DNA from: Neolewinella lacunae
GTDB taxonomy: Bacteria > Bacteroidota > Bacteroidia > Chitinophagales > Saprospiraceae
DNA length: 64,000 nucleotides
Reading direction: 5' to 3'
Assembly: GCF_014349155.1 (NCBI RefSeq)
Contig: NZ_JACSIT010000104.1
Location: 62,001 to 126,000, forward strand
A program made the position numbers and the translations under genes. Positions 2,473-60,148 of this stretch are shown here, piece by piece. A model generated the notes under the pieces. That model was not told the DNA's origin. It saw only the letters and a program-made list of their open reading frames with translations, and searched no databases. Positions within the stretch are counted from its first letter, which is position 1, and the number at the start of each line of letters is the position of its first letter.

Positions 2473-5400
2473 ATGCGTTATTTCTTTCTCGCCTTGCTCT
2501 TGGGCACGCTGCTGCATTGCGGAGGACCCAGGCCCACCCCCGTCCTCACCCTCCAGCCCAACGACCACATCGTGCTCGTGGGCGGCAACCTCTGCTCGCG
2601 GATGCAGGAATTTGCCCACTTTGAGACGGAGCTCCACCTGCGCTTCCCCAACGAGCGCCTCTTCATCCGCAACCTCTGTGACGCGGGAGACACCCCGGGC
2701 TTCCGGGCCCACTCCGCGCGGCTATCGCCTTTTGCCTTTCCGGGGGCCGAAAAATTCCATACCCAGGACGGTCTTAGCCGCGATTCGGATTCTCAGGGCT
2801 TTTTCCCCACGCCGGAGGAGTGGCTGGCGGAGTTGGAGGCCGACGTCATCCTCGGCTTTTTTGGCTACAGCGAGTCCTTTGCCGGGCCGGAGGGCCTGGA
2901 CAATTTTCGCGGCGAACTGCGGGCCTGGATCGATTACACGAGCCTGGCGGATTACAATGGCGAGGCGCCGCCCCGCATCGCGCTGGTGTCTCCGACGGCT
3001 TTTGAAGACGTGACGGCGCGCCTGGATGTGCCCGACGGCAGCGTGGAAAACAAAAACCTCCAACTTTACACCGAGGCCATGCGCGAGGTAGCCGCCGAGG
3101 CTGGTGTGCCCTTCATCGACCTCTTTACGCCCACCGCAGAGTGGTTTGCCGGGGCCGACGACTACACCACCGACGGCGTACAACTCACCGACGCTGCCTA
3201 CGCCAAGCTGGCCCCGTGGCTGGCCGATCGCCTCTTCGGGGGGCGGGCCGACCAAGGGGCGCGGGCGCAGGTGCAGGGATTGGTGAAGGAGAAAAATTGG
3301 CTCTGGCAGAACGACTACAAAATCCCCAACGGCGTCCACGTCTACGGCCGCCGCCACGCCCCCTTTGGCCCGGATAACTACCCCATGGAGCTGCGCAAAA
3401 TCCGGGAAATGACGCTGCTGCGGGATTCCGCCATCTGGCTGGCCCTCCGGGGCGAAACCCTCGACTTGGTTGCGGCCGACGCCAAGACCTTCTCCCTGCC
3501 GCCCGTTACCACCAACTATTCCCTGACGGAGGAGGACGGCACCGTTGCCTACCGCTACGGCGAAGAACTGATGCAAACCTTCGAGACCGCTCCCGGCTAC
3601 GAACTCCAGCTCTTCGCTTCCGAACAGGAATTCCCCGAGTTGGCCAACCCCGCGCAGATGAGCTTCGATAACCAGGGGCGGCTCTGGATTGCCTGCATGC
3701 CCACCTATCCCCACTACCGGCCGGGAGACCAGCGGCCCAATGACAAACTCATCATCCTGGAAGATACCGACAACGACGGCAAAGCCGATAAATCCACCGT
3801 CTTTGCCGACGACCTCCACGTGCCCGTCGGCTTTGAGCTCGCCCCGGAAGGCGTTTACGTTTCCCAGGGTACCCACCTGAAATTGCTCAGGGACACGGAC
3901 GGCGACGACCGCTACGACGAGGCCGAAATCATCTTCTCCGGTTTCGACGATCACGACACCCACCACACCACCAGTGCTTTCACCACCGACCCCTCGGGAG
4001 CCATCTACATGGGCGAAGGCGTTTTCCTGCACACCAACGTGGAAACGCCCTACGGCCCCGTCCGGGCCACCAACGGTGGTTTCTACCGCTTCAGTCCGCA
4101 GCGCCGCCATTTGGAGCGCACCGCCCAGGTCTCCATCCCCAACCCCTGGGGGATTGCCTTTGACCAGTGGGGGCAACCCTTCTTCGCCCACACTTCGGGC
4201 CCTACCGTCAACTGGATGCTGCCCAGCACCATCCGCAACCAGTACGGTGCCCAGGCTCCGCTGACCCGCGACCTGATCGAAGAAGCCCACCGGGTAAGGC
4301 CTACCTCCGGACTGGAATTCGTATCCAGCCGCCACTTCCCCGACGAGGTACAGGGCGATATGCTCATCAACAACACCATCGGCTTTCTGGGCATGAAACA
4401 GCACCGGATGATCGACGATGGAACGGGCTACGACACCCGCTGGCGGCAGGACCTGGTGAAGGGGACGGACCCCAACTTCCGGCCCGTCGATATGGAATTT
4501 GCGCCCGATGGCTCTCTGTACTTCATCGACTGGCACAACGTTTTGATCGGGCACATGCAGCACAATGCCCGGGATCCTTTGCGCGACCACGTTCACGGCC
4601 GCGTCTACCGCATCACCTATCCCAGCCGGCCGCTGGTGGAGCCGGCCCGGGTGGCTGGCGCGCCCATCGCTACCCTGCTGGAGAACCTGAAACTGCCGGA
4701 ATACCGCAGCCGCTACCGCAGCCACCGGGAGTTGCGCGGCCGCGATTCCGCCGAGGTGCTGCCCGCCGTAAAAAGCTGGGTGGCCGCCCTCGATAAACAA
4801 GACCCCAACTACGAGCAATACCTGCTGGAAGGACTGTGGGTGACCTGGGGACAAAACCGGGTAGACCAAGCTTTACTCGAAGCGGCCCTCGGAGCCAGCG
4901 ATTACCGCGTCCGCGCCGCCGCCGTGCAGGTTCTGCGCTACAGTGGCCACCAGATTGCCCGGCAGACGGAACTGCTCAACGCCGCCGCTGGCGATGCCCA
5001 CGGGCGCGTCCGGATGATGGCCATCGTGGCCGCCACCTGGCTGCCCGAAGACGCCGGGAAAATGGTCTTGGCCACGGCTGGCCAACACGCCATTGACCCC
5101 TGGACGGAAGCCACCTACGCCGCCGCCCCCAAGTTCCTCACGGGCGAAGGGCTGGACCTCACCAAGGAAGCCGAAATCACGGCCAACCACCTCAAAGGGG
5201 CCGACCTGGAGCAGTTTGCCGTTGGCCGGGACATCTACCACCAGGACGGATCCTGCGTAACCTGCCACCAGGGTTCGGGCAAAGGATTGGTCAGCTCCGG
5301 CTTCCCGCCTTTACTGGCTTCCGAGTGGGTGACTGGAGACCCGGAAGTGCTCGCCAAAATCCTCCTCAAAGGACTCATCGGACCCATCAAAGTCCTGGGG

Positions 5401-5619
5401 CGCGAATACCCGGGCCAGGTGCCGATGACGCCCTACGAAGACTTGCTGGACGATGCGCAGATGGCCGCCGTGATGACTTACGTACGCAACTCCTTCGGCA
5501 ACCGGGCTTCGGTGGTGTCGGCAGACTTCGTCGCTGCCGTGCGGGCAAAAGTAGAGGCCTCCGGACAAAAAGGCTACTACCGCGCCGAAGACTTAAGCAG
5601 CCAGGCTTCCCGCAAGTAG
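2473..5619 (+). CDS. SGNH-hydrolase / PVC-type heme domain / HEAT / cytochrome c lipoprotein
   Basis: A 1048-residue multidomain lipoprotein; LLHC in the signal peptide is a lipobox (Cys near residue 16). Residues ~30-255 look like an SGNH/GDSL-type esterase domain (VLVGGN block, late DGVQLTD block). Residues ~365-710 form the PVC-type membrane-bound dehydrogenase beta-propeller (NPAQMSFDNQGRLWIA, LEDTDNDGKADK, a DHDTHH segment). Residues ~720-880 are HEAT-like repeats. A mono-heme cytochrome c domain follows, with CVTCH at residues 928-932 and a PMTPYEDL segment that can give the Met ligand. This architecture is known from Bacteroidota and Planctomycetota and is assumed to act in periplasmic sugar oxidation or deacylation, but the substrate is not established. 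A dispersed repeat copy lies in the linker at 3257-3274. The ThuA-like gene nearby often accompanies this family. Confidence 0.85.
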   Translation: MRYFFLALLLGTLLHCGGPRPTPVLTLQPNDHIVLVGGNLCSRMQEFAHFETELHLRFPNERLFIRNLCDAGDTPGFRAHSARLSPFAFPGAEKFHTQDGLSRDSDSQGFFPTPEEWLAELEADVILGFFGYSESFAGPEGLDNFRGELRAWIDYTSLADYNGEAPPRIALVSPTAFEDVTARLDVPDGSVENKNLQLYTEAMREVAAEAGVPFIDLFTPTAEWFAGADDYTTDGVQLTDAAYAKLAPWLADRLFGGRADQGARAQVQGLVKEKNWLWQNDYKIPNGVHVYGRRHAPFGPDNYPMELRKIREMTLLRDSAIWLALRGETLDLVAADAKTFSLPPVTTNYSLTEEDGTVAYRYGEELMQTFETAPGYELQLFASEQEFPELANPAQMSFDNQGRLWIACMPTYPHYRPGDQRPNDKLIILEDTDNDGKADKSTVFADDLHVPVGFELAPEGVYVSQGTHLKLLRDTDGDDRYDEAEIIFSGFDDHDTHHTTSAFTTDPSGAIYMGEGVFLHTNVETPYGPVRATNGGFYRFSPQRRHLERTAQVSIPNPWGIAFDQWGQPFFAHTSGPTVNWMLPSTIRNQYGAQAPLTRDLIEEAHRVRPTSGLEFVSSRHFPDEVQGDMLINNTIGFLGMKQHRMIDDGTGYDTRWRQDLVKGTDPNFRPVDMEFAPDGSLYFIDWHNVLIGHMQHNARDPLRDHVHGRVYRITYPSRPLVEPARVAGAPIATLLENLKLPEYRSRYRSHRELRGRDSAEVLPAVKSWVAALDKQDPNYEQYLLEGLWVTWGQNRVDQALLEAALGASDYRVRAAAVQVLRYSGHQIARQTELLNAAAGDAHGRVRMMAIVAATWLPEDAGKMVLATAGQHAIDPWTEATYAAAPKFLTGEGLDLTKEAEITANHLKGADLEQFAVGRDIYHQDGSCVTCHQGSGKGLVSSGFPPLLASEWVTGDPEVLAKILLKGLIGPIKVLGREYPGQVPMTPYEDLLDDAQMAAVMTYVRNSFGNRASVVSADFVAAVRAKVEASGQKGYYRAEDLSSQASRK
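3257..3274 (+). repeat. Dispersed GC-rich repeat, forward copy inside a CDS linker
   Basis: GGGCGCGGGCGCAGGTGC, one base from the family consensus GGGCGCGGCCGCAGGTGC and identical to the copy at 30215. It encodes part of the linker between the SGNH and propeller domains (GARAQVQ). Confidence 0.65.
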
Positions 5620-5660
5620 CGGGTTGCCAAAAGCGCCCGGCACCCTCGCGGGGAAATGGG

Positions 5661-8195: not shown

Positions 8196-9173
8196 ATGTC
8201 CACCCTCCGTTTCTCGCTGCTTCTTTTCCTCTTCGGTGCCCTGCTTTGCGCTTGTACGACGGGCCCTGCACCTGCGTCCGCGCCCGAAAAAGCCGCCGAA
8301 CCGCTGCACGTGGTTTTTGTGGCTGGCGACGAAGAGTACCGCTCCGAAGAATCCATGCCGATGCTCGCCAAAATGGTGGCGCGGGAACTCGGCGCCAGGG
8401 TGAGTGTGCGTTTTGCGCTGGACTCGGCGGGCTACGTAAACCCCAACGTGAACGACAACATTCCGGGCCTGGAGGTGCTGGATAGTGCGGACCTGCTGGT
8501 GCTCTTCACCCGCTGGCGCAAACTGCCCGATGCGCAGGCCAGGCACATCACCGATTTTGCCGAGTCTGGCAAGCCGCTGGTGGGCTTCCGGACCAGCACC
8601 CACGCCTTTTTGTACGAAAACGACAGCCTGCGGCAGCACCTCAACGACGCCTGGCCCACCGCCGTTTTCGGGCAGCAGTGGATCACCCACCACGGGCATT
8701 TTGACGACGGCGATGCGCCCCTGACCAGTGTGGAAACCATCGCCGAACGGGCCGATCACCCCATTTTGCGCGGTGTGGAACCCTTCCAGGCCTATTCCTG
8801 GCTATATCACGTCGACGGCGGGCAGTGGAAAATCAACCCCAATACGGTGCATTTGCTGCGGGGGACCTCCCTGCGCTCGCAGCACGAAGCTGAGGGGCGT
8901 CTGGAGGAATTCCCCTTGACCAATCCCGTGGCCTGGACCAACGACTACCACGGTGCCCGCGTGTTTTTTACCACCCTGGGCCACCCTTACGACTGGCGGG
9001 AGGAAAGCATGCGCCGCCTGGTGCTCAACGGCATCGCCTGGGCGCTGGGCCAGGAAGACCGGATACCCGCCGAAGGGCTGGACCCCGCCATTGAGGGCAC
9101 TTACGCCCCCAACAATTCCGGCTTCGGCGCAAAATTCAAAGCGGGATTAAAACCGGAAGATTTTCTGAAGTAG
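8196..9173 (+). CDS. ThuA-like domain lipoprotein
   Basis: A 325-residue lipoprotein; LLCAC gives a lipobox and the mature protein starts in a low-complexity TTGPAPASAP linker. The rest is a ThuA-like class I glutamine amidotransferase-fold domain: VVFVAGDEEYRSEESMP strand, LVLFTRWRKLPDAQ, GKPLVGFRTSTHAF, VEPFQAYSWLYHVD, and WTNDYHGARVFFTTLGHPYDW near the C terminus. ThuA-like proteins often neighbour PVC-type heme/propeller proteins, as at 2473 here, and are thought to act in sugar metabolism, but no reaction is established. The sequence after the lipobox Cys is encoded by a dispersed repeat copy (8268-8285). Confidence 0.82.
   Translation: MSTLRFSLLLFLFGALLCACTTGPAPASAPEKAAEPLHVVFVAGDEEYRSEESMPMLAKMVARELGARVSVRFALDSAGYVNPNVNDNIPGLEVLDSADLLVLFTRWRKLPDAQARHITDFAESGKPLVGFRTSTHAFLYENDSLRQHLNDAWPTAVFGQQWITHHGHFDDGDAPLTSVETIAERADHPILRGVEPFQAYSWLYHVDGGQWKINPNTVHLLRGTSLRSQHEAEGRLEEFPLTNPVAWTNDYHGARVFFTTLGHPYDWREESMRRLVLNGIAWALGQEDRIPAEGLDPAIEGTYAPNNSGFGAKFKAGLKPEDFLK
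8268..8285 (-). repeat. Dispersed GC-rich repeat, reverse copy behind a lipobox
   Basis: GCACCTGCGTCCGCGCCC, one base off consensus. It encodes the PAPASAP linker right after the lipobox cysteine of the ThuA-like lipoprotein, a site that tolerates insertion. Confidence 0.7.
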
Positions 9174-10184: not shown

Positions 10185-10202
10185 GGGCGCGGCCGCAGGT
10201 GC
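10185..10202 (+). repeat. Dispersed GC-rich repeat, forward copy
   Basis: Exact match to GGGCGCGGCCGCAGGTGC in the gap between divergent tatC and the TPR gene. It is followed by GGAGGAAAGAGCAAGG, a motif also found downstream of other forward copies. The next copy (12333-12350) is in reverse orientation, so the two bracket the TPR and histidine kinase genes. Confidence 0.85.
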
Positions 10203-12332: not shown

Positions 12333-12350
12333 GCACCTGCGGCCGCGCCC
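12333..12350 (-). repeat. Dispersed GC-rich repeat, reverse copy
   Basis: Exact GCACCTGCGGCCGCGCCC between the convergent histidine kinase and glycosyltransferase genes. Confidence 0.85.
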
Positions 12351-16517: not shown

Positions 16518-16733
16518 GGGCGCGGTCGCAGGTGCTCCCCCCCGACCCCCCGAAAGGGGGAGTAAGGACAGAGGAGCAAGGTTTGTCCCCGCCCCCGTAT
16601 CTGACCGGTTGAGGGTGTTCCCACCCGAATCTCCTGTTTCGGGCAGGGGCACCCTCAGCCAGGTATTCGCATTCGGGTGGGGAGGCCAAACACTGCTTTT
16701 CGGCGTCCTATCCCGGCACCTGCGTCCGCGCCC
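16518..16733. repeat. Dispersed inverted-repeat element (216 bp) with C7/G5 hairpin
   Basis: This fills most of the ~300-base gap between the permease and tRNA-Asn. A forward arm (16518-16535, GGGCGCGGTCGCAGGTGC) faces a reverse arm (16716-16733, GCACCTGCGTCCGCGCCC). Directly after the forward arm is a hairpin, CTCCCCCCC with GGGGGAG (16535-16562), also present at 30232 and 60121. The interior holds further inverted repeats (GAGGGTG/CACCCTC and CCCACCCGAAT/ATTCGGGTGGG), so the whole unit can fold. No protein is encoded. Confidence 0.85.
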
Positions 16734-16815: not shown

Positions 16816-16892
16816 GCCTCAGTAGCTCAGTCGGTTAGAGCGGCGGACTGTTAATCCGTAGGTCGAAGGTTCGAGCCCTTCCTGAGGCGCCA
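16816..16892 (+). tRNA. tRNA-Asn (anticodon GTT)
   Basis: Complete cloverleaf: acceptor GCCTCAG pairs with CTGAGGC, D stem GCTC/GAGC, anticodon stem GCGGA/TCCGT with loop CTGTTAA (anticodon GTT at 16850-16852), T arm GAAGG-TTCGAGC-CCTTC, discriminator G, and an encoded CCA at 16890-16892. It has its own promoter and terminator. Confidence 0.97.
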
Positions 16893-23893: not shown

Positions 23894-24109
23894 GAAACCA
23901 GATTTGCAAAGTGATGGGCAAAGCGTACCCTACCCCGATGATGAGATTATCACGTAAATTTAGGCATTCCCCTCCGATCACAATAAAATTTATATGTGAA
24001 CGATTGAATAAGGTGTATTTTTAACGTCGAATACCGATTTAAGCGTTTGAAACAGGCCACGCGGCGGCCCAACAGGGAACGTGCTCAGGCACCCGCCCGG
24101 GGGAATGCT

Positions 24110-24246
24110 GGCGCGGCCGCAGGTGCAAGGACAAGGACAAAGAGCAAAGAATGACGAAAGAGGATGGCCTTGATCGTGCAACCGCCGTCTGGTGTGCAGA
24201 CGCGCTTTGCTCCTTTCACTTTTCCCCGGCACCTGCGGCCGCGCCC
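24110..24246. repeat. Dispersed inverted-repeat element (137 bp)
   Basis: Lies in the 414-base divergent gap between the two giant T9SS genes. Forward arm GGCGCGGCCGCAGGTGC (24110-24126) faces the exact reverse arm (24229-24246). A second, inner inverted pair is visible: AAAGAGCAAAG (24139-24149) and CTTTGCTCCTTT (24205-24216). The rest of the gap (23894-24109) is AT-richer and probably carries the promoters; I see no firm -7 box in it. Confidence 0.88.
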
Positions 24247-29483: not shown

Positions 29484-32400
29484 ATGCGAATCAAGGCGTG
29501 GATGTGGTGGTCGGCAGTGCTGCACTTGCTGGCCGGTGGGTGGGCCTTTGCCCAGCAGTCCCCTCTTTCTACGCTCCGGGATACTACGGTGGCCGTCTCC
29601 CCCGCCGGCCAACTGCTCGATACCCTCACGGTGGTGCCGGGCAGCGTGCGGGTACTTCGCCATCCCGATCTTCAAGCCATGCCAACGGGTTCCTATACGG
29701 TGGCCGGCCGCTTCCTGGCCTGGCAGACGGTGGATTTGCCGGACTCCGTGCGGGTGCAGTACCGGATTTTGCCTTTCGCGCTCGATGCCCGGGTGCGGTT
29801 GCTGGACTCGGCAGCGCTCGAAAACCGGGGTGGGGGGCTCATCATTGGCGGCTACGATGAGTACGTCCGTTCCGGCCTCCTGGGCAACGACGGCAAGGTG
29901 CGCACCAGCGGCAGTTTCAGCCGCGCCATCAGTTTTGGCAACCGGCAGGACCTCGTTCTCAACTCCGCTTTCAACTTGCAAATGGACGGCGAGCTGGGCA
30001 ACGGCATTCTGGTTTCGGCGGCCATTACGGACGAGAGTTTGCCGATTCAGCCCGAGGGGACAACGCAGCAACTGCGGGAATTTGACCGCATTTTCATCCA
30101 ATTGCGCAAAAACCGGTCCAGCCTCACCGCTGGCGATTACGAATTGCGCAATCCGGATGGTTATTTCTTGCGCTACTTCAAAAAGCTGGAGGGGGCTACG
30201 TTTACTACGGTTTCGGGCGCGGGCGCAGGTGCTCCCCCCCGGCCCCCCGAAGGGGGGAGTAAAGACGCCCCCCCAACCCCCGACGGGGGAGAGCAGGGGG
30301 AGGGCGCGGGCGGTACGCTTACTACGTCGGCCAGCATCGCCATCGCCCGCGGGCAATTCACCCGCCAGCAAATTCAACCCATTGAAGGCAACCAAGGCCC
30401 CTACCAACTCACGGGCGAAGGCGGTCAGCGCTTCCTCATCGTCCTGGCCGGAACGGAAAGGATTTTTCTCGACGGCCAGCTCCTCACCCGGGGACTGGAT
30501 GGCGACTACATCATCGACTACAACCTGGCCGAACTGACCTTCACCACCCGTCGCCTCATTACCCGCGATTCCCGGATTACGGCCGAGTATGAATACGCCG
30601 ACCAGCGCTACGTTCGCACCCTCGCCACGGCCAGCACCCACTACGCCGGGGAGCGCTTTAGTGCCTACCTCAATGCTTATACCCAGCAAGACAGCCGTAC
30701 GGCGACCGGCGATCTGGAGCTCAACGCCAGCCAGCGGCAGCAGCTCAGCTTGGCCGGAGACCGCCCGGGGGGCATCCCTATCCTCAGCCTCGATACCCTC
30801 GATACCCGTTCGGAGTTGCGGGCCACGTACGCTTTGGTGGATACCACCCTCTGCAACGGCAGTGCGCTCATCGATACCGTTTACCTGCGGGCCGATCCGG
30901 AGGGGCGTTACGTGGCCACCTTTACCGACCGCGGCCCCAACGGCGGCGAGTATGCCCTGGATCCCAGTCGGCCAGCCAACGAAAGGGTCTTTCGTTACGT
31001 GGGCCGCGACGTCCAATCCTGCCAACCCCTGGGTAATTTTGCTCCCCTCATCGACTTGGTCGCTCCCCGGCAACAGCAACTCATTGCCCTGGGCGGTGCT
31101 TACCGCATCGGTCCGGCGGGCAGCGTACGGGTGGAAGGCTCCCGCAGTAAACTCGATCAGAACCGCTTCAGCCGGGCCGACGCCGAAGACGACAATGGCC
31201 ACGCCTTGCGCTTTGACGCAGAGCAGCCCTTTAAAATCGGCCCCGACAGCAGCGGTTGGCAACTCGCTACCCGCGGCCATTTTGAATACGTTGAATCCAC
31301 GTACAACGCCATCAATCCTTACCGCTCCCCGGAATTTTTCCGGAACTGGAACCTCAGCAACCGCCTGGGGACGGCGCTGCCCAGTCCCGAAACCGAACGC
31401 ATCCTCGGCGCGGGCCTGGGCCTGGTAAAGCTGGGCGTTGGCCGGTTGGAATACGACTTCGAACGGTTCACCCGCGGCAGTGCCTACACGGGCACGCGCC
31501 ACGCGGGTGGCGTGCGCCTGCAAAGCCAGGGGTGGCTGCTGGAAGGCAGCATCAACTTGCTGGACAGCGAAGACCCGCTGGCCCGGGGGAAGTTCCAGCG
31601 CCCCAGCCTGGTCCTCAACAAAAGCTTTGCGTCCCTGGGGGGCTGGACGATAAAATCCGCTTACCAGGGTGAGCGGTCGGAGCGACGGCAGCGGAGCGAC
31701 GGCAGCTTGCAGGCCACGTCCTTCGGCTTCGACCGCTACGCCATCGGCCTGGAAACTCCCGTAAAAGACGCCTACCGCCTGGCCCTCAACGCCAATCGCC
31801 GCACGGACTACCTCCCCCGGGGGCAGTCCCTGGTCACCAGCACCGAAGCCACCGAGTTGGGTGCGGAGGGCAACTTCGCGGCCAGCGAAAACCTCCAGCT
31901 GGGGGGCAACTTCACCTACCGCGACCTCCGCATTGCCGACGTGGACCTGGCCGGCGATGTGCCGGGCCGCACCTTCCTCGGCCGCCTTGATCTCCGGGCC
32001 AATGCCCTGAGCCGCAGCCTGCGCACCCAAACGACCTACCAGGTAGGCAGCGGGCAGGAACCCCGGGTGGATTTCCAGTACCTCTACGTTGGCCCCGGCC
32101 TGGGCCAGTACATCTGGCAAGACACCCTGTACAATAACGACGGCAAAATCCAGCCCAATGAAATGGAGATCGCGCCTTTTCAGGACATTGCCGACTACGT
32201 ACGGGTTTCCGTTTTCAGCAATGATTTTATCCGCACGGACAACGTCTCCCTGAACCAGAAAATCACCTGGGACCCCACCCGCATCTGGCGGGAGGCGGAG
32301 GGCGTGCGGAAAGCCCTGCGGCGCTTCAGCCTCAATACCAGCTTGCTGATTGACCGCAAAACGAGGGAGGCGGAAAACATCCAGGCCTGGAATCCGCTGC

Positions 32401-33068
32401 AACTGGCCGTCCCTGACAGCAGCCTCGTGGCGCTGAACCTGAGCCGCCGGCACGGCCTCTTCTTCAACCGGGCCAACCCCCGGTACGATGTCCAACTCTC
32501 CAACAACGACCGCCGCAACCGCCGCGTCCTGACCACTGGCTACGAATCCAGCCGGCAGGAAGACTGGACGCTGCTCTTTCGCTTCCGCCCCAACGACGAG
32601 TTGAGCCTGGAAGCCGCTGGCGTGAGTGGCCGGCGGGAGGCCGACTCCGAATTTTTCGACAACAAAGACTTCCACATCCGGCAGCGCAGCATTGAGCCCA
32701 GCATCAGCTGGCAGCCCGGCGAACTGCGGCTGGTGACCAAAGCCATCATTGGCCGCGAAACCAACGTCTTGCCCGAAGGAATGGGGGAACGCAGTGACCG
32801 CCTGGAGGGGCAGCTGGAAGGAAACTTCAAAAACTGGCTCACCGCCCGCTTCCGCTGGGTAGACATTGCCTTTACGGGGGACGCCCGCAGCCCCGTTGGC
32901 TTCGCCCTCCTGCAAGGCCTTCAGCCGGGTCGCAACCTACTCTGGAACCTCGGCGCCACCCGGCAGCTGGGGCAGTACCTCCAGCTGACCATCACCTACG
33001 ATGGCCGGCAGACGGGGGAGGCGCGCACAGTGCACGTGGGGCGGGCGCAGGTGCAGGCGTTTTTTTAG
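29484..33068 (+). CDS. Large outer-membrane beta-barrel protein of unknown function
   Basis: A 1194-residue protein with a signal peptide (MWWSAVLHLLAGGWAFAQ). From residue ~115 it has GGYDEYVRSG, GSFSRAISFGNRQDLVLNSAFNLQMDG, IQPEGTTQQLREFDRIFIQL and AGDYELRNPDGYFLRYFKKLEGATF, a block I recognise from long conserved Bacteroidota outer-membrane proteins without known function. The remainder has many alternating hydrophobic strands (for example FSLNTSLLIDR, ARFRWVDIAF) like a beta-barrel. I use the ATG at 29484 rather than GTG 29457. An 87-base low-complexity insert (30215-30301) of repeat origin lies in frame after TTVSG, and the last few codons overlap another repeat. Confidence 0.78.
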   Translation: MRIKAWMWWSAVLHLLAGGWAFAQQSPLSTLRDTTVAVSPAGQLLDTLTVVPGSVRVLRHPDLQAMPTGSYTVAGRFLAWQTVDLPDSVRVQYRILPFALDARVRLLDSAALENRGGGLIIGGYDEYVRSGLLGNDGKVRTSGSFSRAISFGNRQDLVLNSAFNLQMDGELGNGILVSAAITDESLPIQPEGTTQQLREFDRIFIQLRKNRSSLTAGDYELRNPDGYFLRYFKKLEGATFTTVSGAGAGAPPRPPEGGSKDAPPTPDGGEQGEGAGGTLTTSASIAIARGQFTRQQIQPIEGNQGPYQLTGEGGQRFLIVLAGTERIFLDGQLLTRGLDGDYIIDYNLAELTFTTRRLITRDSRITAEYEYADQRYVRTLATASTHYAGERFSAYLNAYTQQDSRTATGDLELNASQRQQLSLAGDRPGGIPILSLDTLDTRSELRATYALVDTTLCNGSALIDTVYLRADPEGRYVATFTDRGPNGGEYALDPSRPANERVFRYVGRDVQSCQPLGNFAPLIDLVAPRQQQLIALGGAYRIGPAGSVRVEGSRSKLDQNRFSRADAEDDNGHALRFDAEQPFKIGPDSSGWQLATRGHFEYVESTYNAINPYRSPEFFRNWNLSNRLGTALPSPETERILGAGLGLVKLGVGRLEYDFERFTRGSAYTGTRHAGGVRLQSQGWLLEGSINLLDSEDPLARGKFQRPSLVLNKSFASLGGWTIKSAYQGERSERRQRSDGSLQATSFGFDRYAIGLETPVKDAYRLALNANRRTDYLPRGQSLVTSTEATELGAEGNFAASENLQLGGNFTYRDLRIADVDLAGDVPGRTFLGRLDLRANALSRSLRTQTTYQVGSGQEPRVDFQYLYVGPGLGQYIWQDTLYNNDGKIQPNEMEIAPFQDIADYVRVSVFSNDFIRTDNVSLNQKITWDPTRIWREAEGVRKALRRFSLNTSLLIDRKTREAENIQAWNPLQLAVPDSSLVALNLSRRHGLFFNRANPRYDVQLSNNDRRNRRVLTTGYESSRQEDWTLLFRFRPNDELSLEAAGVSGRREADSEFFDNKDFHIRQRSIEPSISWQPGELRLVTKAIIGRETNVLPEGMGERSDRLEGQLEGNFKNWLTARFRWVDIAFTGDARSPVGFALLQGLQPGRNLLWNLGATRQLGQYLQLTITYDGRQTGEARTVHVGRAQVQAFF
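30215..30313 (+). repeat. Dispersed repeat with two GC hairpins, inserted in frame in a CDS
   Basis: Starts with GGGCGCGGGCGCAGGTGC, continues with the CTCCCCCCC/GGGGGGAG hairpin (30232-30259) and a second C7/G5-rich hairpin (about 30267-30300). The 11-base sequence GGGCGCGGGCG recurs at 30302-30312, so an 87-base (29-codon) unit is bracketed by a direct repeat. It encodes a Gly/Pro/Glu-rich stretch in the outer-membrane protein. Confidence 0.8.
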
Positions 33069-33149
33069 GTTATTTCCGGGGCTGGGGCGGGTTGGCGCTG
33101 GCCCTTCCCTGGCTCCTCAGGCTCGTGCCCGGCACCTGCGGCCGCGCCC
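33041..33149. repeat. Dispersed inverted-repeat element (109 bp) at a gene end
   Basis: Forward arm core GCGGGCGCAGGTGC (33041-33054) lies in the last codons of the outer-membrane gene (GRAQVQ); an exact reverse arm sits at 33132-33149. The loop includes the stop codon, so the element shapes the mRNA 3' end. Confidence 0.75.
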
Positions 33150-42333: not shown

Positions 42334-42352
42334 TTTAACTATAGATGCTTTT

Positions 42353-42448
42353 GCGCGGCCGCAGGTGCAAAGAGAGGTCGTTGAAGAGCAAAGTGGGTTT
42401 TGGCCGATCTCTGCTCCTCAAGCCATCCCTTGCACCTGCGTCCGCGCC
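42353..42448. repeat. Dispersed inverted-repeat element (96 bp), most complete example
   Basis: Forward arm GCGCGGCCGCAGGTGCAA (from 42353) faces TTGCACCTGCGTCCGCGC (ending 42448), a stem of about 18 bp with one mismatch. Inside it are inner inverted pairs AGAGAGGTCG/CGATCTCT and TTGAAGAGCA (42381-42390)/TGCTCCTCAA (42412-42421). The unit folds along nearly its whole length and fills most of the gap between the peroxidase and the next gene. Confidence 0.88.
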
Positions 42449-42508
42449 ATACGAAAACGCGGCTGGTGATACCAATTCATGCTGCCACAACCTTGGGCCC
42501 ATAGTCGG

Positions 42509-44612: not shown

Positions 44613-47600
44613 ATGAGCATCAAAGTAGGCATCTTCTTCGGTGGCCCCAGCCGCGAGCGGGAAATTTCCTTTGCCGGTGGCCGGACCGTTTACGATAACT
44701 TGGATAAGGAGCTCTTCGAGGCCATCCCCATTTTTGTGGACAGTTTCCGCCGTTGGTATCTGCTCGATTGGCATTACCTCTACCGGGGTACCGTGCGCGA
44801 CTTTTTTCCGCCCATTGACCTGGCCCCTAAGTCGGCCCACGGCTTCCAGGTGTACCAGGAGAGCCTCGGCCCGCTTGATGAACTGTCGCTGGAGGCGATG
44901 GGCCGCCGCGTGGGCCGCCGCATCCGCCGCCACGAATTGCCGGAGCTGATCGATGTTGCTTTCCTGGCCCTCCACGGCGAGTACGGCGAAGACGGGCAGC
45001 TGCAAAAAGAACTTGAGTACGCGGGCATTCCCTACACGGGCAGCGGCGTCCGGGCCAGCGAAATTGGGATGGACAAAGCCCTGCAAAAAGAGCTCATGGC
45101 CAACCTGGGCTTCGCCGCCCCGGCCATCCGCGTGATCACCAAGGGCGACTTTGACGGCTCCCGCGTGACGGAGCACTTCGCCGTCTGCGAGCGCGAGATT
45201 GGCTGGCCGATGGTCGTCCGACCCGCCCGCCAGGGCAGTTCCATTGGCGTCAGCATTCTGGCCCAGAGCGACGGACTCGAAGCCTTTGAACGCTCCGTCA
45301 ACGCCGCCTTCTTCCGCGAGGTGCTGCCCGTCAGCGAATACGAAGCCCGCGACGCCTACGAGCGCCTTGAGTACGTCCGCCAGCTCAGCGACCTGCGCGA
45401 CGGCATCGCCTTCCCCCTCGACGCGCGCCGCGGAGACCACGAGCTGACGCTTTACACCCCGGACGAGCTCTTCGATTACCTCGAAGCGGCAGTAGCTGCC
45501 CCCGGTCAGGACCCCCTGATCGTCTTCACTGGCCACCAGAGCGAGGAGCGCGTCATCGTCGAAAGCTTCATCGACGGCAAGGAATTCAGCTGCATTGTGG
45601 TGCGCACGCCCGAGGGACAGGCCGTCGCGCTGCCGCCCACCGAGATCGTCAAGCCCAGCAACGAGCTCTTCGACTATCGCAGCAAATACATGCCCGGCCG
45701 CAGCCGCAAGGTGACGCCCATCGAGTTGCCTACCGACCGCATCCAGGCCATCCGCGCCGAGTGCGAGCGCCTCTTCACCGAGCTGGGTTTCCAGGTGTAC
45801 GCCCGCATTGACGGCTTCCACACGCCCGGCGGCGGCATCTACCTCAACGACCCGAACACCACCTCGGGCATGATGCCCAGCAGCTTCTTCTTCCACCAGG
45901 CGGCGGAAATTGGCCTCAACCCCAGCCAGTTCCTCACTTTCATCATTCGCACTTCTTTGCGCGAACGCGGGATGCAGTGGGGCGGACCAGGAGCAATGGA
46001 AGTGGCCGACGAACTGGGCCACCAGCTGGATGCCGCCCTCGACGCCCAGCGCGCTGCGGTGACTACCAAAGAACGCATCGCCGTCCTCCTCGGCGGCACC
46101 AGCTTCGAACGCCACATCAGCGTAGAATCCGGCCGCAACGTCTACGAGAAGCTCAGCTCCTCCGAAGGCTACCGCCCCGTGCCCGTCTTCCTGACCGCCG
46201 CCCCCGGCCGACCTGCCGACTGGCAGCTCTACCAACTCCCCATCAACCTGTTGCTGAAGGACAACGCCGACGACATCCGCGACAAAGTAGCCAAGCCGAC
46301 GGAGCACTCCGTGGTGGCCGACATTCGCCTGGCCTGCGCCAGCATCACTGCGCGCTTTGCCGACCCCGACGTCGTTTTCCAGCCCCGGCCCCTTACCTGG
46401 CAGGAACTGCCAGCGCTGGCCGATGGCGTCTTCATCGCCCTTCACGGCCGGCCGGGCGAAGACGGCCAGGTGCAGGCCAAACTGGAACCCCTGGGCCTCT
46501 ACTACAACGGCTCCGGCATTGCCAGCTCGCGCATCACCATCGATAAGTACGCCACGCTGCATACCCTGGCCGACGCCGGTTTGCTGGTCACCCAGCAGTG
46601 GTTGGCCACGGCCGCCGAGTTTGCCGCTGGCCCCGAGGCCTTTTTCGACGCCGTGGAGGCCCGCTTCGGTTACCCCCTGATCGCCAAACCCGTGGACGAC
46701 GGTTGCAGCTCTGCCGTAAAGCTCATCAAGAGCCGCCCGGAACTCCTCGCCTACTGCCACCTCACTTTCCAACCGGCGGGGATGGACACCGCCCGCTGCC
46801 GCCAGCAGATGAAACTGGCCGCCAAAGACGAGTGGCCCATCGGCAAAGACACCATCCTCTTCGAAAAAGCCATCACCGCCGCCGGGGCCGATAAATTCCT
46901 GGAAATTACCGGGGGTATGCTCACCCACCGGGGCGTCGATGGCAACCGCCGCTACGAAGTATTCGAACCCAGCGAAACCCTGGCCGGCGGCGAAGTGCTC
47001 AGCCTGGAAGAAAAATTCCTGGCCGGCGAAGGACAAAACCTCACCCCCGCCCGCCTGGCCACGGACGACTACAGCTACGACTACGTGGCCGGACAAGTCC
47101 GGGCCGATCTGGAACGCGCCGCCCGCGCCGTCGGCATCGAAGGCTACTGCCGCATCGATGCCTTCGTCCGCGTCTTCGCCGATGGCCGCGTAGAGACCAT
47201 TCCCATTGAGATCAACAGCCTGCCGGGGATGACCCCCGCCACGGCCATTTTTCACCAGGCCGCCCTCGCTGGCTACCAACCCGCTGAATTCATCGACCGC
47301 ATCCTCCAATACGGCAAAAGCCGCCGCGACACTGCTCCGGCTGCGCCCACCCCGCCTGCCGCGGCCCCCCAACCTGCGCCGGTTCCGGCGGCCGTTACCG
47401 TAAGTGCCGCTACGACTCCCCAAGCCACCGAGGTCGTCTTTACGGACGCTGCTCCTGAAGAGACGTCCCCGGCACCTGCGCTCAGCGCCCCCTACCAGCC
47501 GCCCCGCCCCGCTTATGATGCCCCGCCGGATCGTAGTCCGCTACCCCGCCGGGAAGGACTGCTGAACAGCACCATAGCGCTGTTCAAAAGCAGCTACTTC

Positions 47601-48628: not shown

Positions 48629-51106
48629 ATGAACGTAAGACTACTCTTGCCAGCCCTTTTGCTCGGGCTGGGTTTTTCTCCCCTCTTCGCCCAGGAATTT
48701 CGGCCCTTGGCTGGCTACGATCAATTGCAACCCGCTGCGGAGGCCAAGGCCCCGCCGGTGGTGGAGAAGCGGGTGTGCAGCACGTTTGATCTGGAAGGCA
48801 TCACGCTGCTGGCACCGGGAGAAAATCTGGAGTTGCGGGCGGGCCTCGATACCACGGGGCTGGGCGATAAGCTCGTCTTCGGCTGCGAGGGTTGTGCGGA
48901 CGCCAGCGGGGGCATTGCCACTTTCCGGCTGGATACTTTGCGGTATGGCGCGGCCTCAGGTGCAGTGCAAGAACTGGATACGCTCGTCCTTTCCGTCTGC
49001 AACCAAGCTGGCGACTGTGCGGAGCCACTGACCGTAATCGTGCTGGTGCAAAGGGCGGGTAGGACCATCGAACTGGGTGACCAGGCGGTCGACCCCGGTG
49101 GCGTTGCCAACGTGGTGGTGCCCCCGGCGGACCTCCCCGGCGGAGCCTTTTGCCGCAGCATTGCCGGTTGCGCACCCACCTACCCGGGGCGCGGGCAGGA
49201 TTTTTACTTCCTCAACGGGTTTGAAAACAATAACAACTTCCGCTACTTCGCCACCCGCTACGGTGGGACGGACGCGGTTTGCGTTACCGTTTGCAACGAG
49301 CTGGGACTCTGCGACGTGTACCGAAGCACCTTTACCGTGACCCGGAATACGACGGATTTGCCCTTTTTCGATGACTTCAGCTACGGTGGTTTCCGGCCAG
49401 CCGAAGACCTGTGGCAAGACGAAGACGTACTGATCAACCGCAACTTTGCCATCAACCCGCCGTCCGTGGGCGTGGCCACCTTCGACGCGGTCAACAGCCA
49501 GGGCGCGCCCTACACGGCCACGGGGACGTCGCTGGCGTCCTTCCGCGACTTCCTGACCTCCACGCCCATCGACTTGCAGGGGGCGGCGAATACGGCGCTT
49601 AACTTTTACCTCCAGCCCCGGGGCCTGGGCAACCGGCCGGAGCGGCAGGACAGCTTCGTGGTGCAGTTCCTCACCCCGGCGGGCAACTGGAACACCGTTT
49701 TCAGTGTGCCGGGCATGCCCACTACCGAAGGCAACAACTCCGATCGCCCCTTCATCGGCTACACTATTCCCGTAGGACCGGAGTACCAGTACTTCGGCTT
49801 CCAGTTCCGCTTCGCCTCCAAGAGTACCGAGCAGGGGGCGGTGGATATGTGGCATTTGGATTATGTGAAGTTGGACAACCTCTCCAATACCCTCATCACC
49901 CAAGACATGGCCTTTGTCAATCCGCCCGAAGGCATCCTGGAACCCTATACGGCCTTGCCGATCCGGCAGTACCAGGCGGCGGGTAACGACTTGTTGCGGG
50001 ACAGTTTCCGGCTGGCGGTGTACAACTTGCGCAACGACATTACGCCGATGAGCTCGGGCAATCTGGTCATCAGCACGGGCAGCGGACAGGCCATTACCTC
50101 GGGGGGCTTGCTTTCACCGGAGCTTTTTGGCGGGGCAACTGGCTTTGCGCCTCAGGCTTATGACTTCCGGGCGATGGACTTCCGTGGCTGGAACGGCTTT
50201 GCCGACCTCTCCGCTTTCCTGGCGGGTCTGGACAGTGCCGCGCCGCCGTTTAAGGTCCGGACGAGCTACCGGATGATCGTAGATACCGAAGACCGCAGTT
50301 TCGCCCCCGGCATCGTACAAAACGACACCGTCAGCACCCTCACCTGTTTTGACGAGTTCATGGCTTACGACGACGGCACCGCCGAGGTAACCCTGGAAGG
50401 GCAGGAAGGCACCGTGATTTTGCAGCAGTTTGACGCGTTTGTGCCCGATATGCTGGTGGGCCTGCGCATCCGCATTCCGCGGGGGCTCGGCGGACTGGGC
50501 GATCAGCCACTGCGGCTGGTGGTGTACACCGGCGATACCGTGCCCGTGACCCGGATCTACGAAGAAGACTTCCCGATCCTCTACGCTGAATCCTTCAACC
50601 GCGACACGCTGCAGGGGTACACGACCTACTTGTTTGAGGAGCGACTGGACCTGCCCGTGGGTCGTTTCTTCGTGGGCTGGGAACAGCAGCGGGCCAACCG
50701 CAACATTGGCATTGGCTTTGACCGCAACAACCAACCGGAGAACGTGCAGTGGTTCGATTTTGGCAATGGCTGGCAGCGCCTGACGGGGACGACGCGCGGG
50801 GCCATCATGGTCCGGCCCCTCCTGGCTGGCTTCGACGATTTCCAGACGAGCGTTTCCACGCCTACGCCCCCGACGGAGTTGGTAACGGTATACCCCAACC
50901 CGACCAGCGGAACCCTGCACCTGCGGCCGCGCCCCGGAACCCATCTGTATTCCCTGGAAGTTCGCCTCTACACCGCAAATGGCAGCCTCCTGCGGACCCA
51001 GCGGGGTACCGCGCAGCTTGCCCTGGATGACCTGCCTGCGGGCCTCTACCTCCTGCAAGTCAGCGACGGGCAGCAGCGCAGCCACCACAAAATCATCCGC
51101 CGCTAA
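48629..51106 (+). CDS. Secreted protein with T9SS type A sorting domain
   Basis: An 825-residue protein with signal peptide (LLLPALLLGLGFSPLFAQ). It begins with Cys-containing modules (CSTFDLEGITLLAPGENLELRAG; VCNQAGDC; VCNELGLCDVY), then a stretch FFDDFSYGGFRPAEDLWQDEDVLINRNFAINPPSVGVATFDAVN that I have seen in Bacteroidota secreted proteins, and beta-rich regions to residue ~740. The end (VYPNPTSGTLHL, LALDDLPAGLYLLQV, KIIRR) is a type A sorting domain. No enzyme motif is recognised. Start chosen at ATG 48629; the frame is open to 48557. Two dispersed-repeat copies lie inside (48947 and 50917). Confidence 0.82.
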   Translation: MNVRLLLPALLLGLGFSPLFAQEFRPLAGYDQLQPAAEAKAPPVVEKRVCSTFDLEGITLLAPGENLELRAGLDTTGLGDKLVFGCEGCADASGGIATFRLDTLRYGAASGAVQELDTLVLSVCNQAGDCAEPLTVIVLVQRAGRTIELGDQAVDPGGVANVVVPPADLPGGAFCRSIAGCAPTYPGRGQDFYFLNGFENNNNFRYFATRYGGTDAVCVTVCNELGLCDVYRSTFTVTRNTTDLPFFDDFSYGGFRPAEDLWQDEDVLINRNFAINPPSVGVATFDAVNSQGAPYTATGTSLASFRDFLTSTPIDLQGAANTALNFYLQPRGLGNRPERQDSFVVQFLTPAGNWNTVFSVPGMPTTEGNNSDRPFIGYTIPVGPEYQYFGFQFRFASKSTEQGAVDMWHLDYVKLDNLSNTLITQDMAFVNPPEGILEPYTALPIRQYQAAGNDLLRDSFRLAVYNLRNDITPMSSGNLVISTGSGQAITSGGLLSPELFGGATGFAPQAYDFRAMDFRGWNGFADLSAFLAGLDSAAPPFKVRTSYRMIVDTEDRSFAPGIVQNDTVSTLTCFDEFMAYDDGTAEVTLEGQEGTVILQQFDAFVPDMLVGLRIRIPRGLGGLGDQPLRLVVYTGDTVPVTRIYEEDFPILYAESFNRDTLQGYTTYLFEERLDLPVGRFFVGWEQQRANRNIGIGFDRNNQPENVQWFDFGNGWQRLTGTTRGAIMVRPLLAGFDDFQTSVSTPTPPTELVTVYPNPTSGTLHLRPRPGTHLYSLEVRLYTANGSLLRTQRGTAQLALDDLPAGLYLLQVSDGQQRSHHKIIRR
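48947..48963 (+). repeat. Possible dispersed repeat copy inside the T9SS gene
   Basis: GGCGCGGCCTCAGGTGC differs at one position from the family core; encodes GAASGAV. Confidence 0.45.
50917..50934 (-). repeat. Dispersed repeat copy at the T9SS sorting domain
   Basis: Exact GCACCTGCGGCCGCGCCC, reading HLRPRPG inside the C-terminal sorting domain right after the PNPTSGTL strand. Confidence 0.75.
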
Positions 51107-54004: not shown

Positions 54005-54022
54005 GGGCGCTTACGCAGGTGC
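54005..54022 (+). repeat. Dispersed GC-rich repeat, decayed forward copy
   Basis: GGGCGCTTACGCAGGTGC, three bases from consensus, followed by AGCAAAGG as at other copies, between the receptor and DUF4249 genes. Confidence 0.5.
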
Positions 54023-58373: not shown

Positions 58374-58394
58374 GGGCTCCCAATTCGGAGGGAT

Positions 58395-58724: not shown

Positions 58725-58975
58725 GTTTCAGACTGTTTTTCAAAGTCGTCGATGCTCAGGTAATCGCCGCGTTTTACACCAGCTACTTCGGCTGCGTACA
58801 CGCTTTTCATGTCTTCGGCGTGCAGGACGGTGCCATCGGCATCATAACCGAAGATGGGGTCTTTTTTTTGCTGGCTCACGTAAGTCCCCACCATGGCGTG
58901 TAGTGCGACTAAAAAATGGTCATCTAATTCATCCAGCCAGTGGCTTACGTCGCTGCGCATATCTGCGGTAGTCAT
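58718..58975 (-). CDS. Antitoxin of a type II toxin-antitoxin pair
   Basis: An 85-residue acidic protein upstream of and overlapping the RelE/ParE toxin gene by seven bases. The segment DPIFGYDADGTVLHAEDMKSVYAAEVAG resembles antitoxins paired with ParE-like toxins in Bacteroidota. No classic DNA-binding motif is obvious; it should bind and neutralise the toxin. Confidence 0.8.
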   Translation of the reverse strand: MTTADMRSDVSHWLDELDDHFLVALHAMVGTYVSQQKKDPIFGYDADGTVLHAEDMKSVYAAEVAGVKRGDYLSIDDFEKQSETW

Positions 58976-59150
58976 AGTCGATTTTTTGTTAGGAGTTGCT
59001 AAGATAACGATTTACGACTTCAGCAGGTTGCTCCCTGGTTATTAAGGCGTGCTTCGTGCCATTAGTGGAAACGCAGCGTAAGCATAAGCTGTTTCCCCGC
59101 TTTTTCTCGGAGAGCGGTGGTATTTTACTGCCCGTTCAAACTTTCCGATC

Positions 59151-60095
59151 ATGCACAACTTTCGCCTGACTTTCCTGGCTCCTTTGTTTTTTCTTGGCAC
59201 CTGCGTCAGCGCCCAACAAGCCACGCCTAACCTGGCCGAGCGCCTGGGCTATCCGGCGGATACCAAGTTGCTCATCGTCCACGCCGACGATCTGGGGGTG
59301 ACCCATGCGACCAACACGGCCAGCCTGGCGGCCCTGGAAAAAGGCAGCGTCAGTTCCGCCAGCGTGATGGCCAACTGCCCCTGGCTGCCCGAAGTGGCCG
59401 AATGGGCGCGCGCCAACCCGGAACACGACCTGGGGATGCACCTGGTGCTGACCAGCGAATGGCGGCTGCTGCGCTGGGGCAGTGTGGCCCCCGCCGATCA
59501 GGTAGCGAGTTTGCTCGACAGCAGCGGCTATCTGAAGCCCCTCTGCGACTTGATGGCCGAAAATGCCGACCCCGAGGAGGTCGAGCGGGAAATCCGCGCC
59601 CAAATTGAGCGGGCGCGCAGCCTTGGCCTGGAGCCCACCCACCTCGATTCCCACATGGGCTGCCTGGTTTATTACCCGCAGTTCTTCGCCCGCTACCTTA
59701 AAGTCGCCCGGGAATACGGCGTGCCGGCCATGGTATCGCGCCACGAAATCCTGGAAATCGGGCCGGAATGGGCGCAAATGATGACGCCCGAAGACCTGGT
59801 GATTGACCACATTTACACGGCGGGTACGCCCGATTACGCGCTAGGTCTCGACAATTACTACCGGGGCGTGCTGGCGAAACTTGACCCCGGCGTCAGTGTG
59901 TTGCTGATCCACACCGCCCTCGACGGCGCAGAGTCGGCGGGCATGGCCGGCGGCGTGGAAGGCTGGGGCAACCGCTGGAGGCAGCAGGATTTCAATTTTT
60001 TTACTAGCGAAGACTTTCTCAACATCCTGCGCGACGAGAAAATAAGCCTCATCACCTGGCGGGAACTGGCGCAGCGCTGGGCCGCAAGGAAATGA
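59151..60095 (+). CDS. YdjC/ChbG-like carbohydrate deacetylase, secreted
   Basis: A 314-residue protein with signal peptide (LTFLAPLFFLGTCVSAQ). KLLIVHADDLGVTHATNTASLAAL carries the HADDLG motif with the metal-binding Asp, followed by LGMHLVLT and LEPTHLDSHMGC with the paired His ligands, typical of the YdjC deacetylase family acting on acetylated oligosaccharides such as chitooligosaccharides. Its exported location is unusual for E. coli ChbG but common in Bacteroidota. The signal-peptide end is encoded by a dispersed repeat copy (59197-59214). Confidence 0.85.
   Translation: MHNFRLTFLAPLFFLGTCVSAQQATPNLAERLGYPADTKLLIVHADDLGVTHATNTASLAALEKGSVSSASVMANCPWLPEVAEWARANPEHDLGMHLVLTSEWRLLRWGSVAPADQVASLLDSSGYLKPLCDLMAENADPEEVEREIRAQIERARSLGLEPTHLDSHMGCLVYYPQFFARYLKVAREYGVPAMVSRHEILEIGPEWAQMMTPEDLVIDHIYTAGTPDYALGLDNYYRGVLAKLDPGVSVLLIHTALDGAESAGMAGGVEGWGNRWRQQDFNFFTSEDFLNILRDEKISLITWRELAQRWAARK
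59197..59214 (-). repeat. Dispersed repeat-like copy at a signal-peptide junction
   Basis: GCACCTGCGTCAGCGCCC, two bases from consensus, encoding GTCVSAQ at the cleavage region of the YdjC-like protein. Confidence 0.5.
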
Positions 60096-60103
60096 CGTAA
60101 TAG

Positions 60104-60148
60104 GGGCGCGGCCGCAGGTGCTCCCCCCCGACCCCCCGAAGGGGGGAG
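60104..60148 (+). repeat. Dispersed repeat with C7/G6 hairpin
   Basis: Exact GGGCGCGGCCGCAGGTGC followed by CTCCCCCC (60121-60128) pairing with GGGGGGAG (60141-60148). Near-identical to the start of the 16518 element. It is also followed by a GGAGCAGTG segment like the GAGCAAAG of other copies. Confidence 0.85.

What the first reader, a model, noticed from the sequence alone, without database searches (positions are those of the whole stretch)
3257..60121. Dispersed 18-bp repeat, 19 copies in both orientations across 57 kb
The sequence GCACCTGCGGCCGCGCCC or its complement occurs at 3257, 8268, 10185, 12333, 16518, 16716, 24110, 24229, 30215, 33041, 33132, 42353, 42432, 47472, 48947, 50917, 54005, 59197 and 60104. 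Six are exact 18-mers (10185, 12333, 24229, 33132, 50917, 60104); most others differ at one or two positions. About eleven lie between genes. Forward and reverse copies alternate along the window with only two exceptions. This density and exactness are not expected from GC-rich base composition alone. I know of no named family with this core.
Basis: seen in the sequence. Interest (0 to 1): 0.85.

Follow-up and report, generated by a model that had tools for sequence, protein, structure and literature searches.

The report
Genome-wide one-way DNA signal in Neolewinella
A long, directional DNA word is scattered more than a thousand times through the chromosomes of a group of marine bacteria, with copies facing the same way kept about three kilobases apart; it behaves like the 'take me up' tags that some transformable bacteria use to recognise their own DNA, which would be new for this branch of life.

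Summary
The repeat is real, and the window is a sample of a genome-wide system. G000 (genus Neolewinella/Lewinella) holds 1028 exact GCACCTGCGNNCGCGCC against 0 for the reversed pattern. The unit is about 45 bp: a TTGCTCCTT-like box ~20 bp upstream, the core, then A-rich DNA. It is well above control in 18 of 21 genus genomes, with dialects, and nearly absent from other genera. G108, which lacks it, carries 668 copies of a different word found once in the other 20 genomes.

New finding: same-orientation copies avoid each other within about 3 kb (38 same versus 158 opposite pairs in G000; 14:61 and 2:33 in two more species), while opposite copies lie near random density. It held in held-out DNA and, on small numbers, for G108's word.

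Copies lie in genes and between them, come or go by substitution in CobB, and occur in phage contigs.

Best reading: an uptake-signal-like self-recognition tag spread by transformation, acting on one strand or side. No full-length type IV pilus-type ATPase was found, so known uptake machinery does not fit. Uptake itself is untested.

The parts
3257..3274 (-). core copy, inside gene 2473-5619
8268..8285 (+). core copy, inside gene 8196-9173, in the lipoprotein-signal-like N-terminus
10185..10202 (-). core copy upstream of tatC (9230-10099 -); recognisable copies at the same place in 5 of 15 related loci
12333..12350 (+). core copy, intergenic, convergent genes
16518..16535 (-). core copy with C-rich/G-rich hairpin between TGCTC box and core, just after a TauE gene
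16716..16733 (+). core copy, divergent partner of 16518
24109..24126 (-). core copy, intergenic, pair with 24229
24229..24246 (+). core copy, exact, with TTTGCTCCTT box upstream
30215..30232 (-). core copy with hairpin, inside gene 29502-33068, in a length-variable loop of the protein
33037..33054 (-). degenerate core copy at the 3' end of gene 29502-33068
33132..33149 (+). core copy, exact, intergenic
42351..42368 (-). core copy, intergenic pair with 42432
42432..42449 (+). core copy, intergenic
47472..47489 (+). gapped variant of the core inside gene 44613-48356
48946..48963 (-). core copy inside gene 48659-51106; shared with the G106 orthologue
50917..50934 (+). core copy, exact, inside gene 48659-51106; shared with the G106 orthologue
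54005..54022 (-). core copy, intergenic
59197..59214 (+). core copy encoding the end of a signal-peptide-like leader (GTCVSAQ)
60104..60121 (-). core copy, exact, with hairpin, intergenic

Best explanation
The repeat is the core of a ~45 bp, polar recognition sequence that works like a DNA uptake sequence (DUS/USS): a tag recognised on DNA from kin, so that tagged fragments are taken up and recombined more often and tags accumulate by molecular drive. Shown: extreme copy number, polarity, dialects and one outright replacement in the genus, copies both in and between genes, partial conservation at orthologous places, copies in phage contigs, and exclusion of same-orientation copies within ~3 kb. 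Inferred: that the process is natural transformation, that ~3 kb is the length of strand imported or converted, that orientation decides which strand or side is imported, and that a receptor of a pilus-independent Bacteroidota uptake machine reads it.
For: Copy number: 1028 exact, control 0. Genus-limited: 3 of 100 family genomes, one being G000 itself, one congeneric (20 copies) and one with a single copy; 18 of 21 genus genomes are 3.6-fold or more above the reversed control at up to 2 mismatches. Upstream box at fixed distance: GCTC starts 18-21 bp before the core in 77 of 184 hairpin-less G000 sites; in G106 64 GCTC/GCTT occurrences fall there for 112 sites. Dialects: GCACCTGCGGCAGCGCC in G107, GCTCCTGCG in G006; G108 has 668 copies of TTGCTACTTTGNYAGYCAAAA (up to 2 mismatches), own reversed control 0, one copy in the other 20 genomes. 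No large orientation bias along four long contigs (59:57, 40:47, 54:54, 39:49). 71 of 230 copies coding, near the 34-42% tabulated for Neisseria DUS (PMC2397512, section 7 read). Substitution in CobB. Same-strand exclusion under 3 kb: G000 38:158, G106 14:61, G107 2:33; none of 2000 strand shuffles reached the observed value in any; 268 control words had same fractions 0.387-0.780 against 0.194. DUS spacing is reported to match conversion-fragment length. Temperate phages of Pasteurellaceae accumulate USS (PMC6776037 passages); here phage contigs carry the motif, one with integrase and repressor-like genes. Riemerella is transformable without pilus homologues (PMC8459023, passages and two sections); ComEC in 21 of 21 genomes.
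Against: No uptake or transformation has been tested in this genus. All DUS/USS receptors known to me (recalled) are type IV pilus linked; PF00437 gives only weak partial matches in 20 of 21 genomes (11 just over the cut-off). ComEC is near-universal and is also present in G108, G110 and G118, so it does not track the motif. In H. influenzae uptake is reported independent of USS orientation (PMC1939737 passages), so strand-specific spacing is not a known DUS property. The unit is longer than known DUS. 17 of 25 unshared coding copies lie next to alignment gaps, so insertion or recombination may contribute; the CobB changes are not polarised, so they could be losses. Shared occupancy of gene ends between G000 and G106 is clear only for 5' ends. 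Intergenic copies prefer to point towards the nearest gene, which uptake does not explain. Phage hosts are inferred from the motif itself.
Confidence: 0.6

Rival explanations
1. A polar intracellular signal read by a directional DNA machine, Chi-like (repair/recombination) or a self-mark that protects DNA from a host nuclease or defence system; one mark per strand every few kb is enough.
For: Polarity and same-strand spacing are what a one-way machine would want; phage contigs carry the motif; ComEC does not track the motif.
Against: Chi sites are short and enriched in coding DNA (recalled); this unit is ~45 bp with a box about two helical turns from the core and is enriched between genes. Replacement of the word in G108 fits a receptor dialect better than a core repair enzyme. 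No large orientation bias on four long contigs.
Confidence: 0.2
2. A boundary or terminator element for transcription: copies flank genes and point into them from both sides.
For: Intergenic enrichment and toward-gene orientation: 64:24 at 3' ends and 46:21 at 5' ends in G000, 20:8 and 23:16 in G106; 46 of 230 sites have a hairpin.
Against: 71 of 230 copies are in genes, those in gene bodies on both strands about equally (28 same, 32 opposite); alternation is as strong for coding copies (neighbours under 4 kb, coding/coding 11 alternating and 3 same). 184 of 230 sites have no such hairpin. Rfam finds nothing at the sites in the window.
Confidence: 0.08
3. REP/REPIN-type repeats moved by a RAYT (Y1) transposase.
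For: Hundreds of copies, inverted close pairs (21 of 27 close pairs in G000 are divergent), optional hairpin; Y1 genes in 20 of 21 genomes.
Against: 16 of 31 Y1 loci examined have no copy with up to 2 mismatches within ~1.5 kb and 15 have one to three, 19 copies in about 100 kb, which is the general density (my arithmetic); a Y1 gene of G000 has its own different repeat array; G114, a fragmented draft, has no Y1 hit but 1261 copies. The core is not kept palindromic; 31% coding; substitution in CobB.
Confidence: 0.05
4. The same-strand spacing is only a by-product of deletion between direct repeats (inverted copies are safe, direct copies delete the DNA between them).
For: It would deplete direct but not inverted neighbours.
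Against: The deficit has no trend from 0 to 2.5 kb (0.05-0.25 of expectation) and then rises to about 1 at 4 kb, whereas repeat-mediated deletion should be steepest at the shortest distances; it also appears for the 21 bp word of G108 (0:8 and 1:5; small numbers, partial list).
Confidence: 0.07

Closest known systems
Neisseriaceae DNA uptake sequences (DUS)
   Same: Over a thousand copies, about a third in genes, dialects between species, spacing on the scale of conversion fragments, a polar word (PMC3630211 passages, PMC2397512 passages and section 7).
   Different: DUS are 10-12 bp and bound by the pilin ComP; here ~45 bp, no full-length pilus-type ATPase found, and spacing is strand-specific. 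I saw no orientation-resolved spacing in the passages I read.
Pasteurellaceae uptake signal sequences (USS)
   Same: High copy, molecular drive, accumulation in temperate phages (PMC7811141 and PMC6776037 passages); core plus weaker flanking segments (recalled).
   Different: Uptake there is reported not to depend on USS orientation (PMC1939737 passages); sequence and phylum differ.
REP/REPIN with RAYT
   Same: High copy, inverted pairs, some hairpins.
   Different: About half of the Y1 loci examined have no copy near them; copies in coding DNA; core not kept palindromic.
Chi sites
   Same: Polar, frequent, kilobase range (recalled).
   Different: Length, intergenic enrichment, dialect replacement.

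Membership tests
DUS/USS (uptake sequences) | short word in far higher copy than chance, in both orientations | tested here: met
   508 forward and 520 reverse against 0 in the reversed control
DUS/USS (uptake sequences) | dialects among related species | tested here: met
DUS/USS (uptake sequences) | copies in genes and, over-represented, between them | tested here: met
   71 of 230 coding, 155 intergenic, 4 at edges, where 81% of the DNA is coding (own gene caller)
DUS/USS (uptake sequences) | raises DNA uptake or transformation | not testable with these tools
   needs a bench assay
DUS/USS (uptake sequences) | read by a type IV pilus machine, as in the known cases (recalled) | tested here: not met
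   PF00437: only partial matches (about positions 139-222 or 110-174 of 370, 19-25 bits) in 20 of 21 genomes, 11 just over the cut-off; other pilus genes were not searched. I therefore do not file it as a member, only as working like one
DUS/USS (uptake sequences) | orientation does not matter (as reported for H. influenzae) | tested here: not met
   same-strand exclusion; this is genome spacing, not an uptake measurement
REP/REPIN | linked RAYT gene flanked by the repeat | tested here: not met
   16 of 31 Y1 loci without any copy, the rest at background density
REP/REPIN | palindromic, extragenic | tested here: not met
   variable middle position in the core; 31% coding
Chi sites | changes RecBCD/AddAB activity | not testable with these tools
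   none
Intrinsic terminators | stem-loop followed by T run at 3' ends | tested here: not met
   hairpin in 46 of 230 sites only, and many copies inside genes

The most novel reading that the evidence does not exclude
Neolewinella has a sequence-specific, strand-directed gene-exchange system without type IV pili: a long polar tag sets which strand (or side) of kin DNA is imported, about 3 kb at a time. The genome itself records that length as a strand-specific exclusion zone, and the tag can be swapped whole for another word, as in G108.
Probability: 0.45. Interest if true: 0.93.

Novelty: new variant of a known kind. Interest (0 to 1): 0.82.

Why it matters
Uptake sequences are described, as far as I recall, only in Neisseriaceae and Pasteurellaceae, with type IV pili. 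My searches of the open-licence library for uptake sequences together with Bacteroidetes (3 papers, seen as a listing, titles on other subjects), Saprospiraceae (0) and Flavobacteriaceae (0) gave nothing on the subject. A further, independent case in a phylum whose uptake machine is little known would give a bait to find that machine. The strand-specific spacing is a statistical signature that can be looked for in any genome and would test how directional DNA import is.

Tried and rejected
RAYT/Y1 linkage was rejected. Orientation bias along contigs: none large seen. A gene-orientation rule as the cause of the alternation was rejected, because coding copies and both neighbour orders alternate alike. 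A gene transfer agent packaging signal: phage contigs with the motif suggested it, but their terminase matched in 0 of 21 genus genomes (the tool warns that an empty answer alone shows nothing), and one such contig has an integrase. Rfam: nothing at the sites in the window; two further stretches gave one SAM riboswitch. My first CobB alignment picked the wrong reading frames and was redone with tblastn. One search failed on file names and was rerun; one search failed half-way and its control part was redone. In the records counted, one GC-rich record (G128) had 12 matches with up to 2 mismatches against 4 in its control, about half of them a local cluster, so loose counts in single records are not proof. 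PMC5217627 (spaced motifs in genomes, passages) did not mention Bacteroidetes. Lewinella/Neolewinella paper searches were seen as listings only. Maughan et al. 2010 is not held and is known only through other papers.
Full report
CHECK. In the window 18 copies of GCACCTGCGGCCGCGCCC occur with up to 3 mismatches, against 0.34 expected from shuffles. The whole assembly G000 (5.8 Mb, 154 contigs, window = C86:62001-126000) has 508 forward and 520 reverse exact GCACCTGCGNNCGCGCC, and none of the reversed control pattern.

ANATOMY. Aligning 123 copies (up to 1 mismatch) from 464 kb shows more than the 18-mer. The constancy of the core positions is partly forced by how copies were picked; not forced are the second middle position (C in 90%), the base after the pattern (C in 81%), the A-rich stretch that follows (43-46% A over four positions) and a pyrimidine-rich stretch upstream. 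The first middle position varies (G 62%, T 21%, A 10%, C 7%). In hairpin-less sites the four letters GCTC of a TTGCTCCTT-like box start 18-21 bp before the core in 77 of 184. G106 shows the same plan, with 64 GCTC/GCTT occurrences at -21 to -18 for 112 sites. In G107 the CT-rich flank and A-rich tail are there but the box itself is faint; its core is GCACCTGCGGCAGCGCC. In 46 of 230 G000 sites a CCCCCC-TTCG-GGGGGG hairpin sits between box and core; by counting on the printed sequences it adds about 21 bp, two helical turns, which is my reading and not a computed statistic.

DISTRIBUTION. Of 100 genomes of the family, 3 have exact copies: G000, the congener G006 (20) and one with a single copy. 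Within the genus all 21 have matches with up to 2 mismatches; 18 stand 3.6-fold or more above the reversed-pattern control, G118 twofold (126 against 63), and G108 (23 against 17) and G110 (44 against 48) at about control level. G108 has instead TTGCTACTTTGNYAGYCAAAA: 336 forward and 332 reverse copies with up to 2 mismatches, none in its reversed control, and one copy in the other 20 genomes. It keeps a TTGCT-CTTT box and a CAAAA end but lacks the GC core. G110 has a sparse related word, CTGCGCCCCGCC followed by GC and mostly A-rich DNA (4 copies in 80 kb).

WHERE COPIES LIE. With my own codon-based gene caller (not a standard tool; at least one 'coding' hit looks like a false gene) 71 of 230 copies in 848 kb of G000 are coding, 155 intergenic and 4 at contig edges, where 81% of the DNA is coding. 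In G106 44 of 112 are coding. Eleven (G000) and ten (G106) coding copies are in the first 110 bp of a gene on its own strand; of the nine printed, eight encode leader ends such as CTCVSAQ or GTCVRAQ and one (window 8268) APASAPE. Intergenic copies prefer to point towards the nearest gene (64:24 and 46:21 in G000; 20:8 and 23:16 in G106). I cannot explain this.

ORIGIN AND AGE. In CobB, in 20 genomes aligned without a gap, the core stands at one place in G000 and G117 (exact), in G006 and G112 (as GCTCCTGCG) and in G105 (one change); the other 15 lack it. So it came or went by substitution there, not insertion; the direction was not tested. Upstream of tatC, copies recognisable by eye stand at the same place in 5 of 15 related loci, three within one mismatch, although the flanks have changed; in most of the others a gene lies directly upstream. 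Among 108 reciprocal best pairs of G000 and G106 genes, 11 of 36 occupied gene ends in G000 are also occupied in G106, against 20 of 180 unoccupied ones (Fisher p 0.007; 5' ends alone p 0.006, 3' ends alone p 0.19), with orientation agreeing in 8 of 11; 11 of 22 coding copies in G000 are shared. Against a pure substitution story: 17 of 25 unshared coding copies are beside alignment gaps, and the copy at window 30215 sits in a loop whose length varies among species.

SPACING RULE. Neighbouring copies alternate (G000, up to 2 mismatches: 94 alternating, 37 same in the first 464 kb). Pair statistics show why: same-orientation pairs are rare below 3 kb, opposite pairs are not. I fixed this on 848 kb of G000 and 440 kb of G106, then tested it on 400 kb of held-out G000 (6 same, 35 opposite below 3 kb) and 400 kb of G107 (2 and 33). 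Of 2000 strand shuffles each, none reached the observed same-strand counts in G000 (38; 352 copies in 1.25 Mb), G106 (14) or G107 (2). Of 268 control 8-mers with 180-500 copies, the lowest same fraction was 0.387 (a word of the motif's own hairpin) and the median 0.55; the motif has 0.194. Pooled, same-strand pairs are at 0.05-0.25 of the uniform expectation from 0 to 2.5 kb, 0.45 at 2.5-3 kb, 0.65 and 0.88 in the next two half-kilobases and 0.89-1.04 beyond 4 kb; opposite pairs are in excess (2.9) below 250 bp, somewhat low at 250-1000 bp (0.80, 0.63) and 0.80-1.03 from 1 kb on. At up to 3 mismatches the effect weakens (G106 42:88, G107 28:59), as expected if the added hits are mostly background. 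G108's word gives 0 same and 8 opposite pairs below 3 kb among 100 exact copies from a partial list, and 1 and 5 in 80 kb. The rule is therefore strand-specific with a length scale of about 3 kb, independent of coding state and perhaps of the word itself.

PHAGES. L309 and L310 encode terminase-like proteins, L287 a head maturation protease and L296 collagen-like tail proteins. Record G121 (44.6 kb) has 11 copies with up to 2 mismatches against 2 in its reversed control, no same-strand pair below 3 kb and 4 opposite. Of 12 loci with an L310-type terminase (L310's own and L295's contig among them), 7 have copies and 5 (4.4-9.5 kb) have none. One (L375) has integrase and repressor-like genes. 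That terminase matched in 0 of 21 genus genomes, so the hosts are inferred, not shown. Pasteurellaceae temperate phages likewise gather USS (PMC6776037 passages).

MECHANISM. A polar word copied by the thousand, with dialects, in and between genes, partly kept in orthologous places and found in phages, is the pattern of uptake sequences. Treangen et al. report that DUS spacing matches conversion-fragment length (PMC2397512, section 7 read). If orientation fixes which strand or side enters, a second copy in the same orientation within one imported length adds nothing, while an opposite copy does: this would yield the rule seen. A strand effect with single-stranded DNA is on record for N. gonorrhoeae (Duffin and Seifert, as cited in PMC12061091 passages); orientation independence is on record for H. 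influenzae (PMC1939737 passages), which speaks against a general rule. In the genus PF00437 finds only partial matches of 19-25 bits, mostly in long frames, 11 genomes just passing the cut-off; I take these for other P-loop ATPases (inference), so no PilB/PilT-like ATPase was found, and other pilus genes were not searched. ComEC is in 21 of 21 genomes, the three without many cores included. Riemerella, also Bacteroidota, is transformable without pilus homologues, by genes of a proposed new machinery (PMC8459023). I therefore propose 'works like a DUS' and do not file it as a DUS.

LIMITS. Gene calls are mine; G000 is a draft in 154 contigs and I examined 1.25 of 5.8 Mb for spacing; place lists of whole-genome pattern searches are partial; the literature library is open-licence only; no function was measured.

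Noticed in passing
L058:1990-2480 (G000 C73, beside a Y1 transposase gene): Array of a different repeat around GTCTTGACCTCACCTGAGGTCGAGACGTTT, looking like a REP array of its own transposase.
   Followed up: no
L097/L098 (G110): TGGAGCTCC-type words about 25 times in 40 kb against 0.4 expected; absent from the top list when counted by dispersed places, so probably a local array.
   Followed up: partly
L094-L096 (G101): CTACCGCCTACC-type words over-represented (about 16 copies in 60 kb), nature unknown.
   Followed up: no
window 8268, 59197 and the 11 N-terminal coding copies in 848 kb of G000: The motif doubles as the coding sequence of signal-peptide-like leader ends (LLLVL...CTCVSAQ).
   Followed up: partly
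window 16518, 30215, 60104: C-rich/TTCG/G-rich hairpin between box and core; in the 848 kb sample 35 of 40 such hairpins are followed by the core.
   Followed up: partly
window 16816-16889 (+): tRNA gene next to the 16518/16716 pair.
   Followed up: no
G110, L097:6443, 12263; L371:5927; L372:5586: Sparse related word CTGCGCCCCGCCGC, possibly a dialect in decline.
   Followed up: partly
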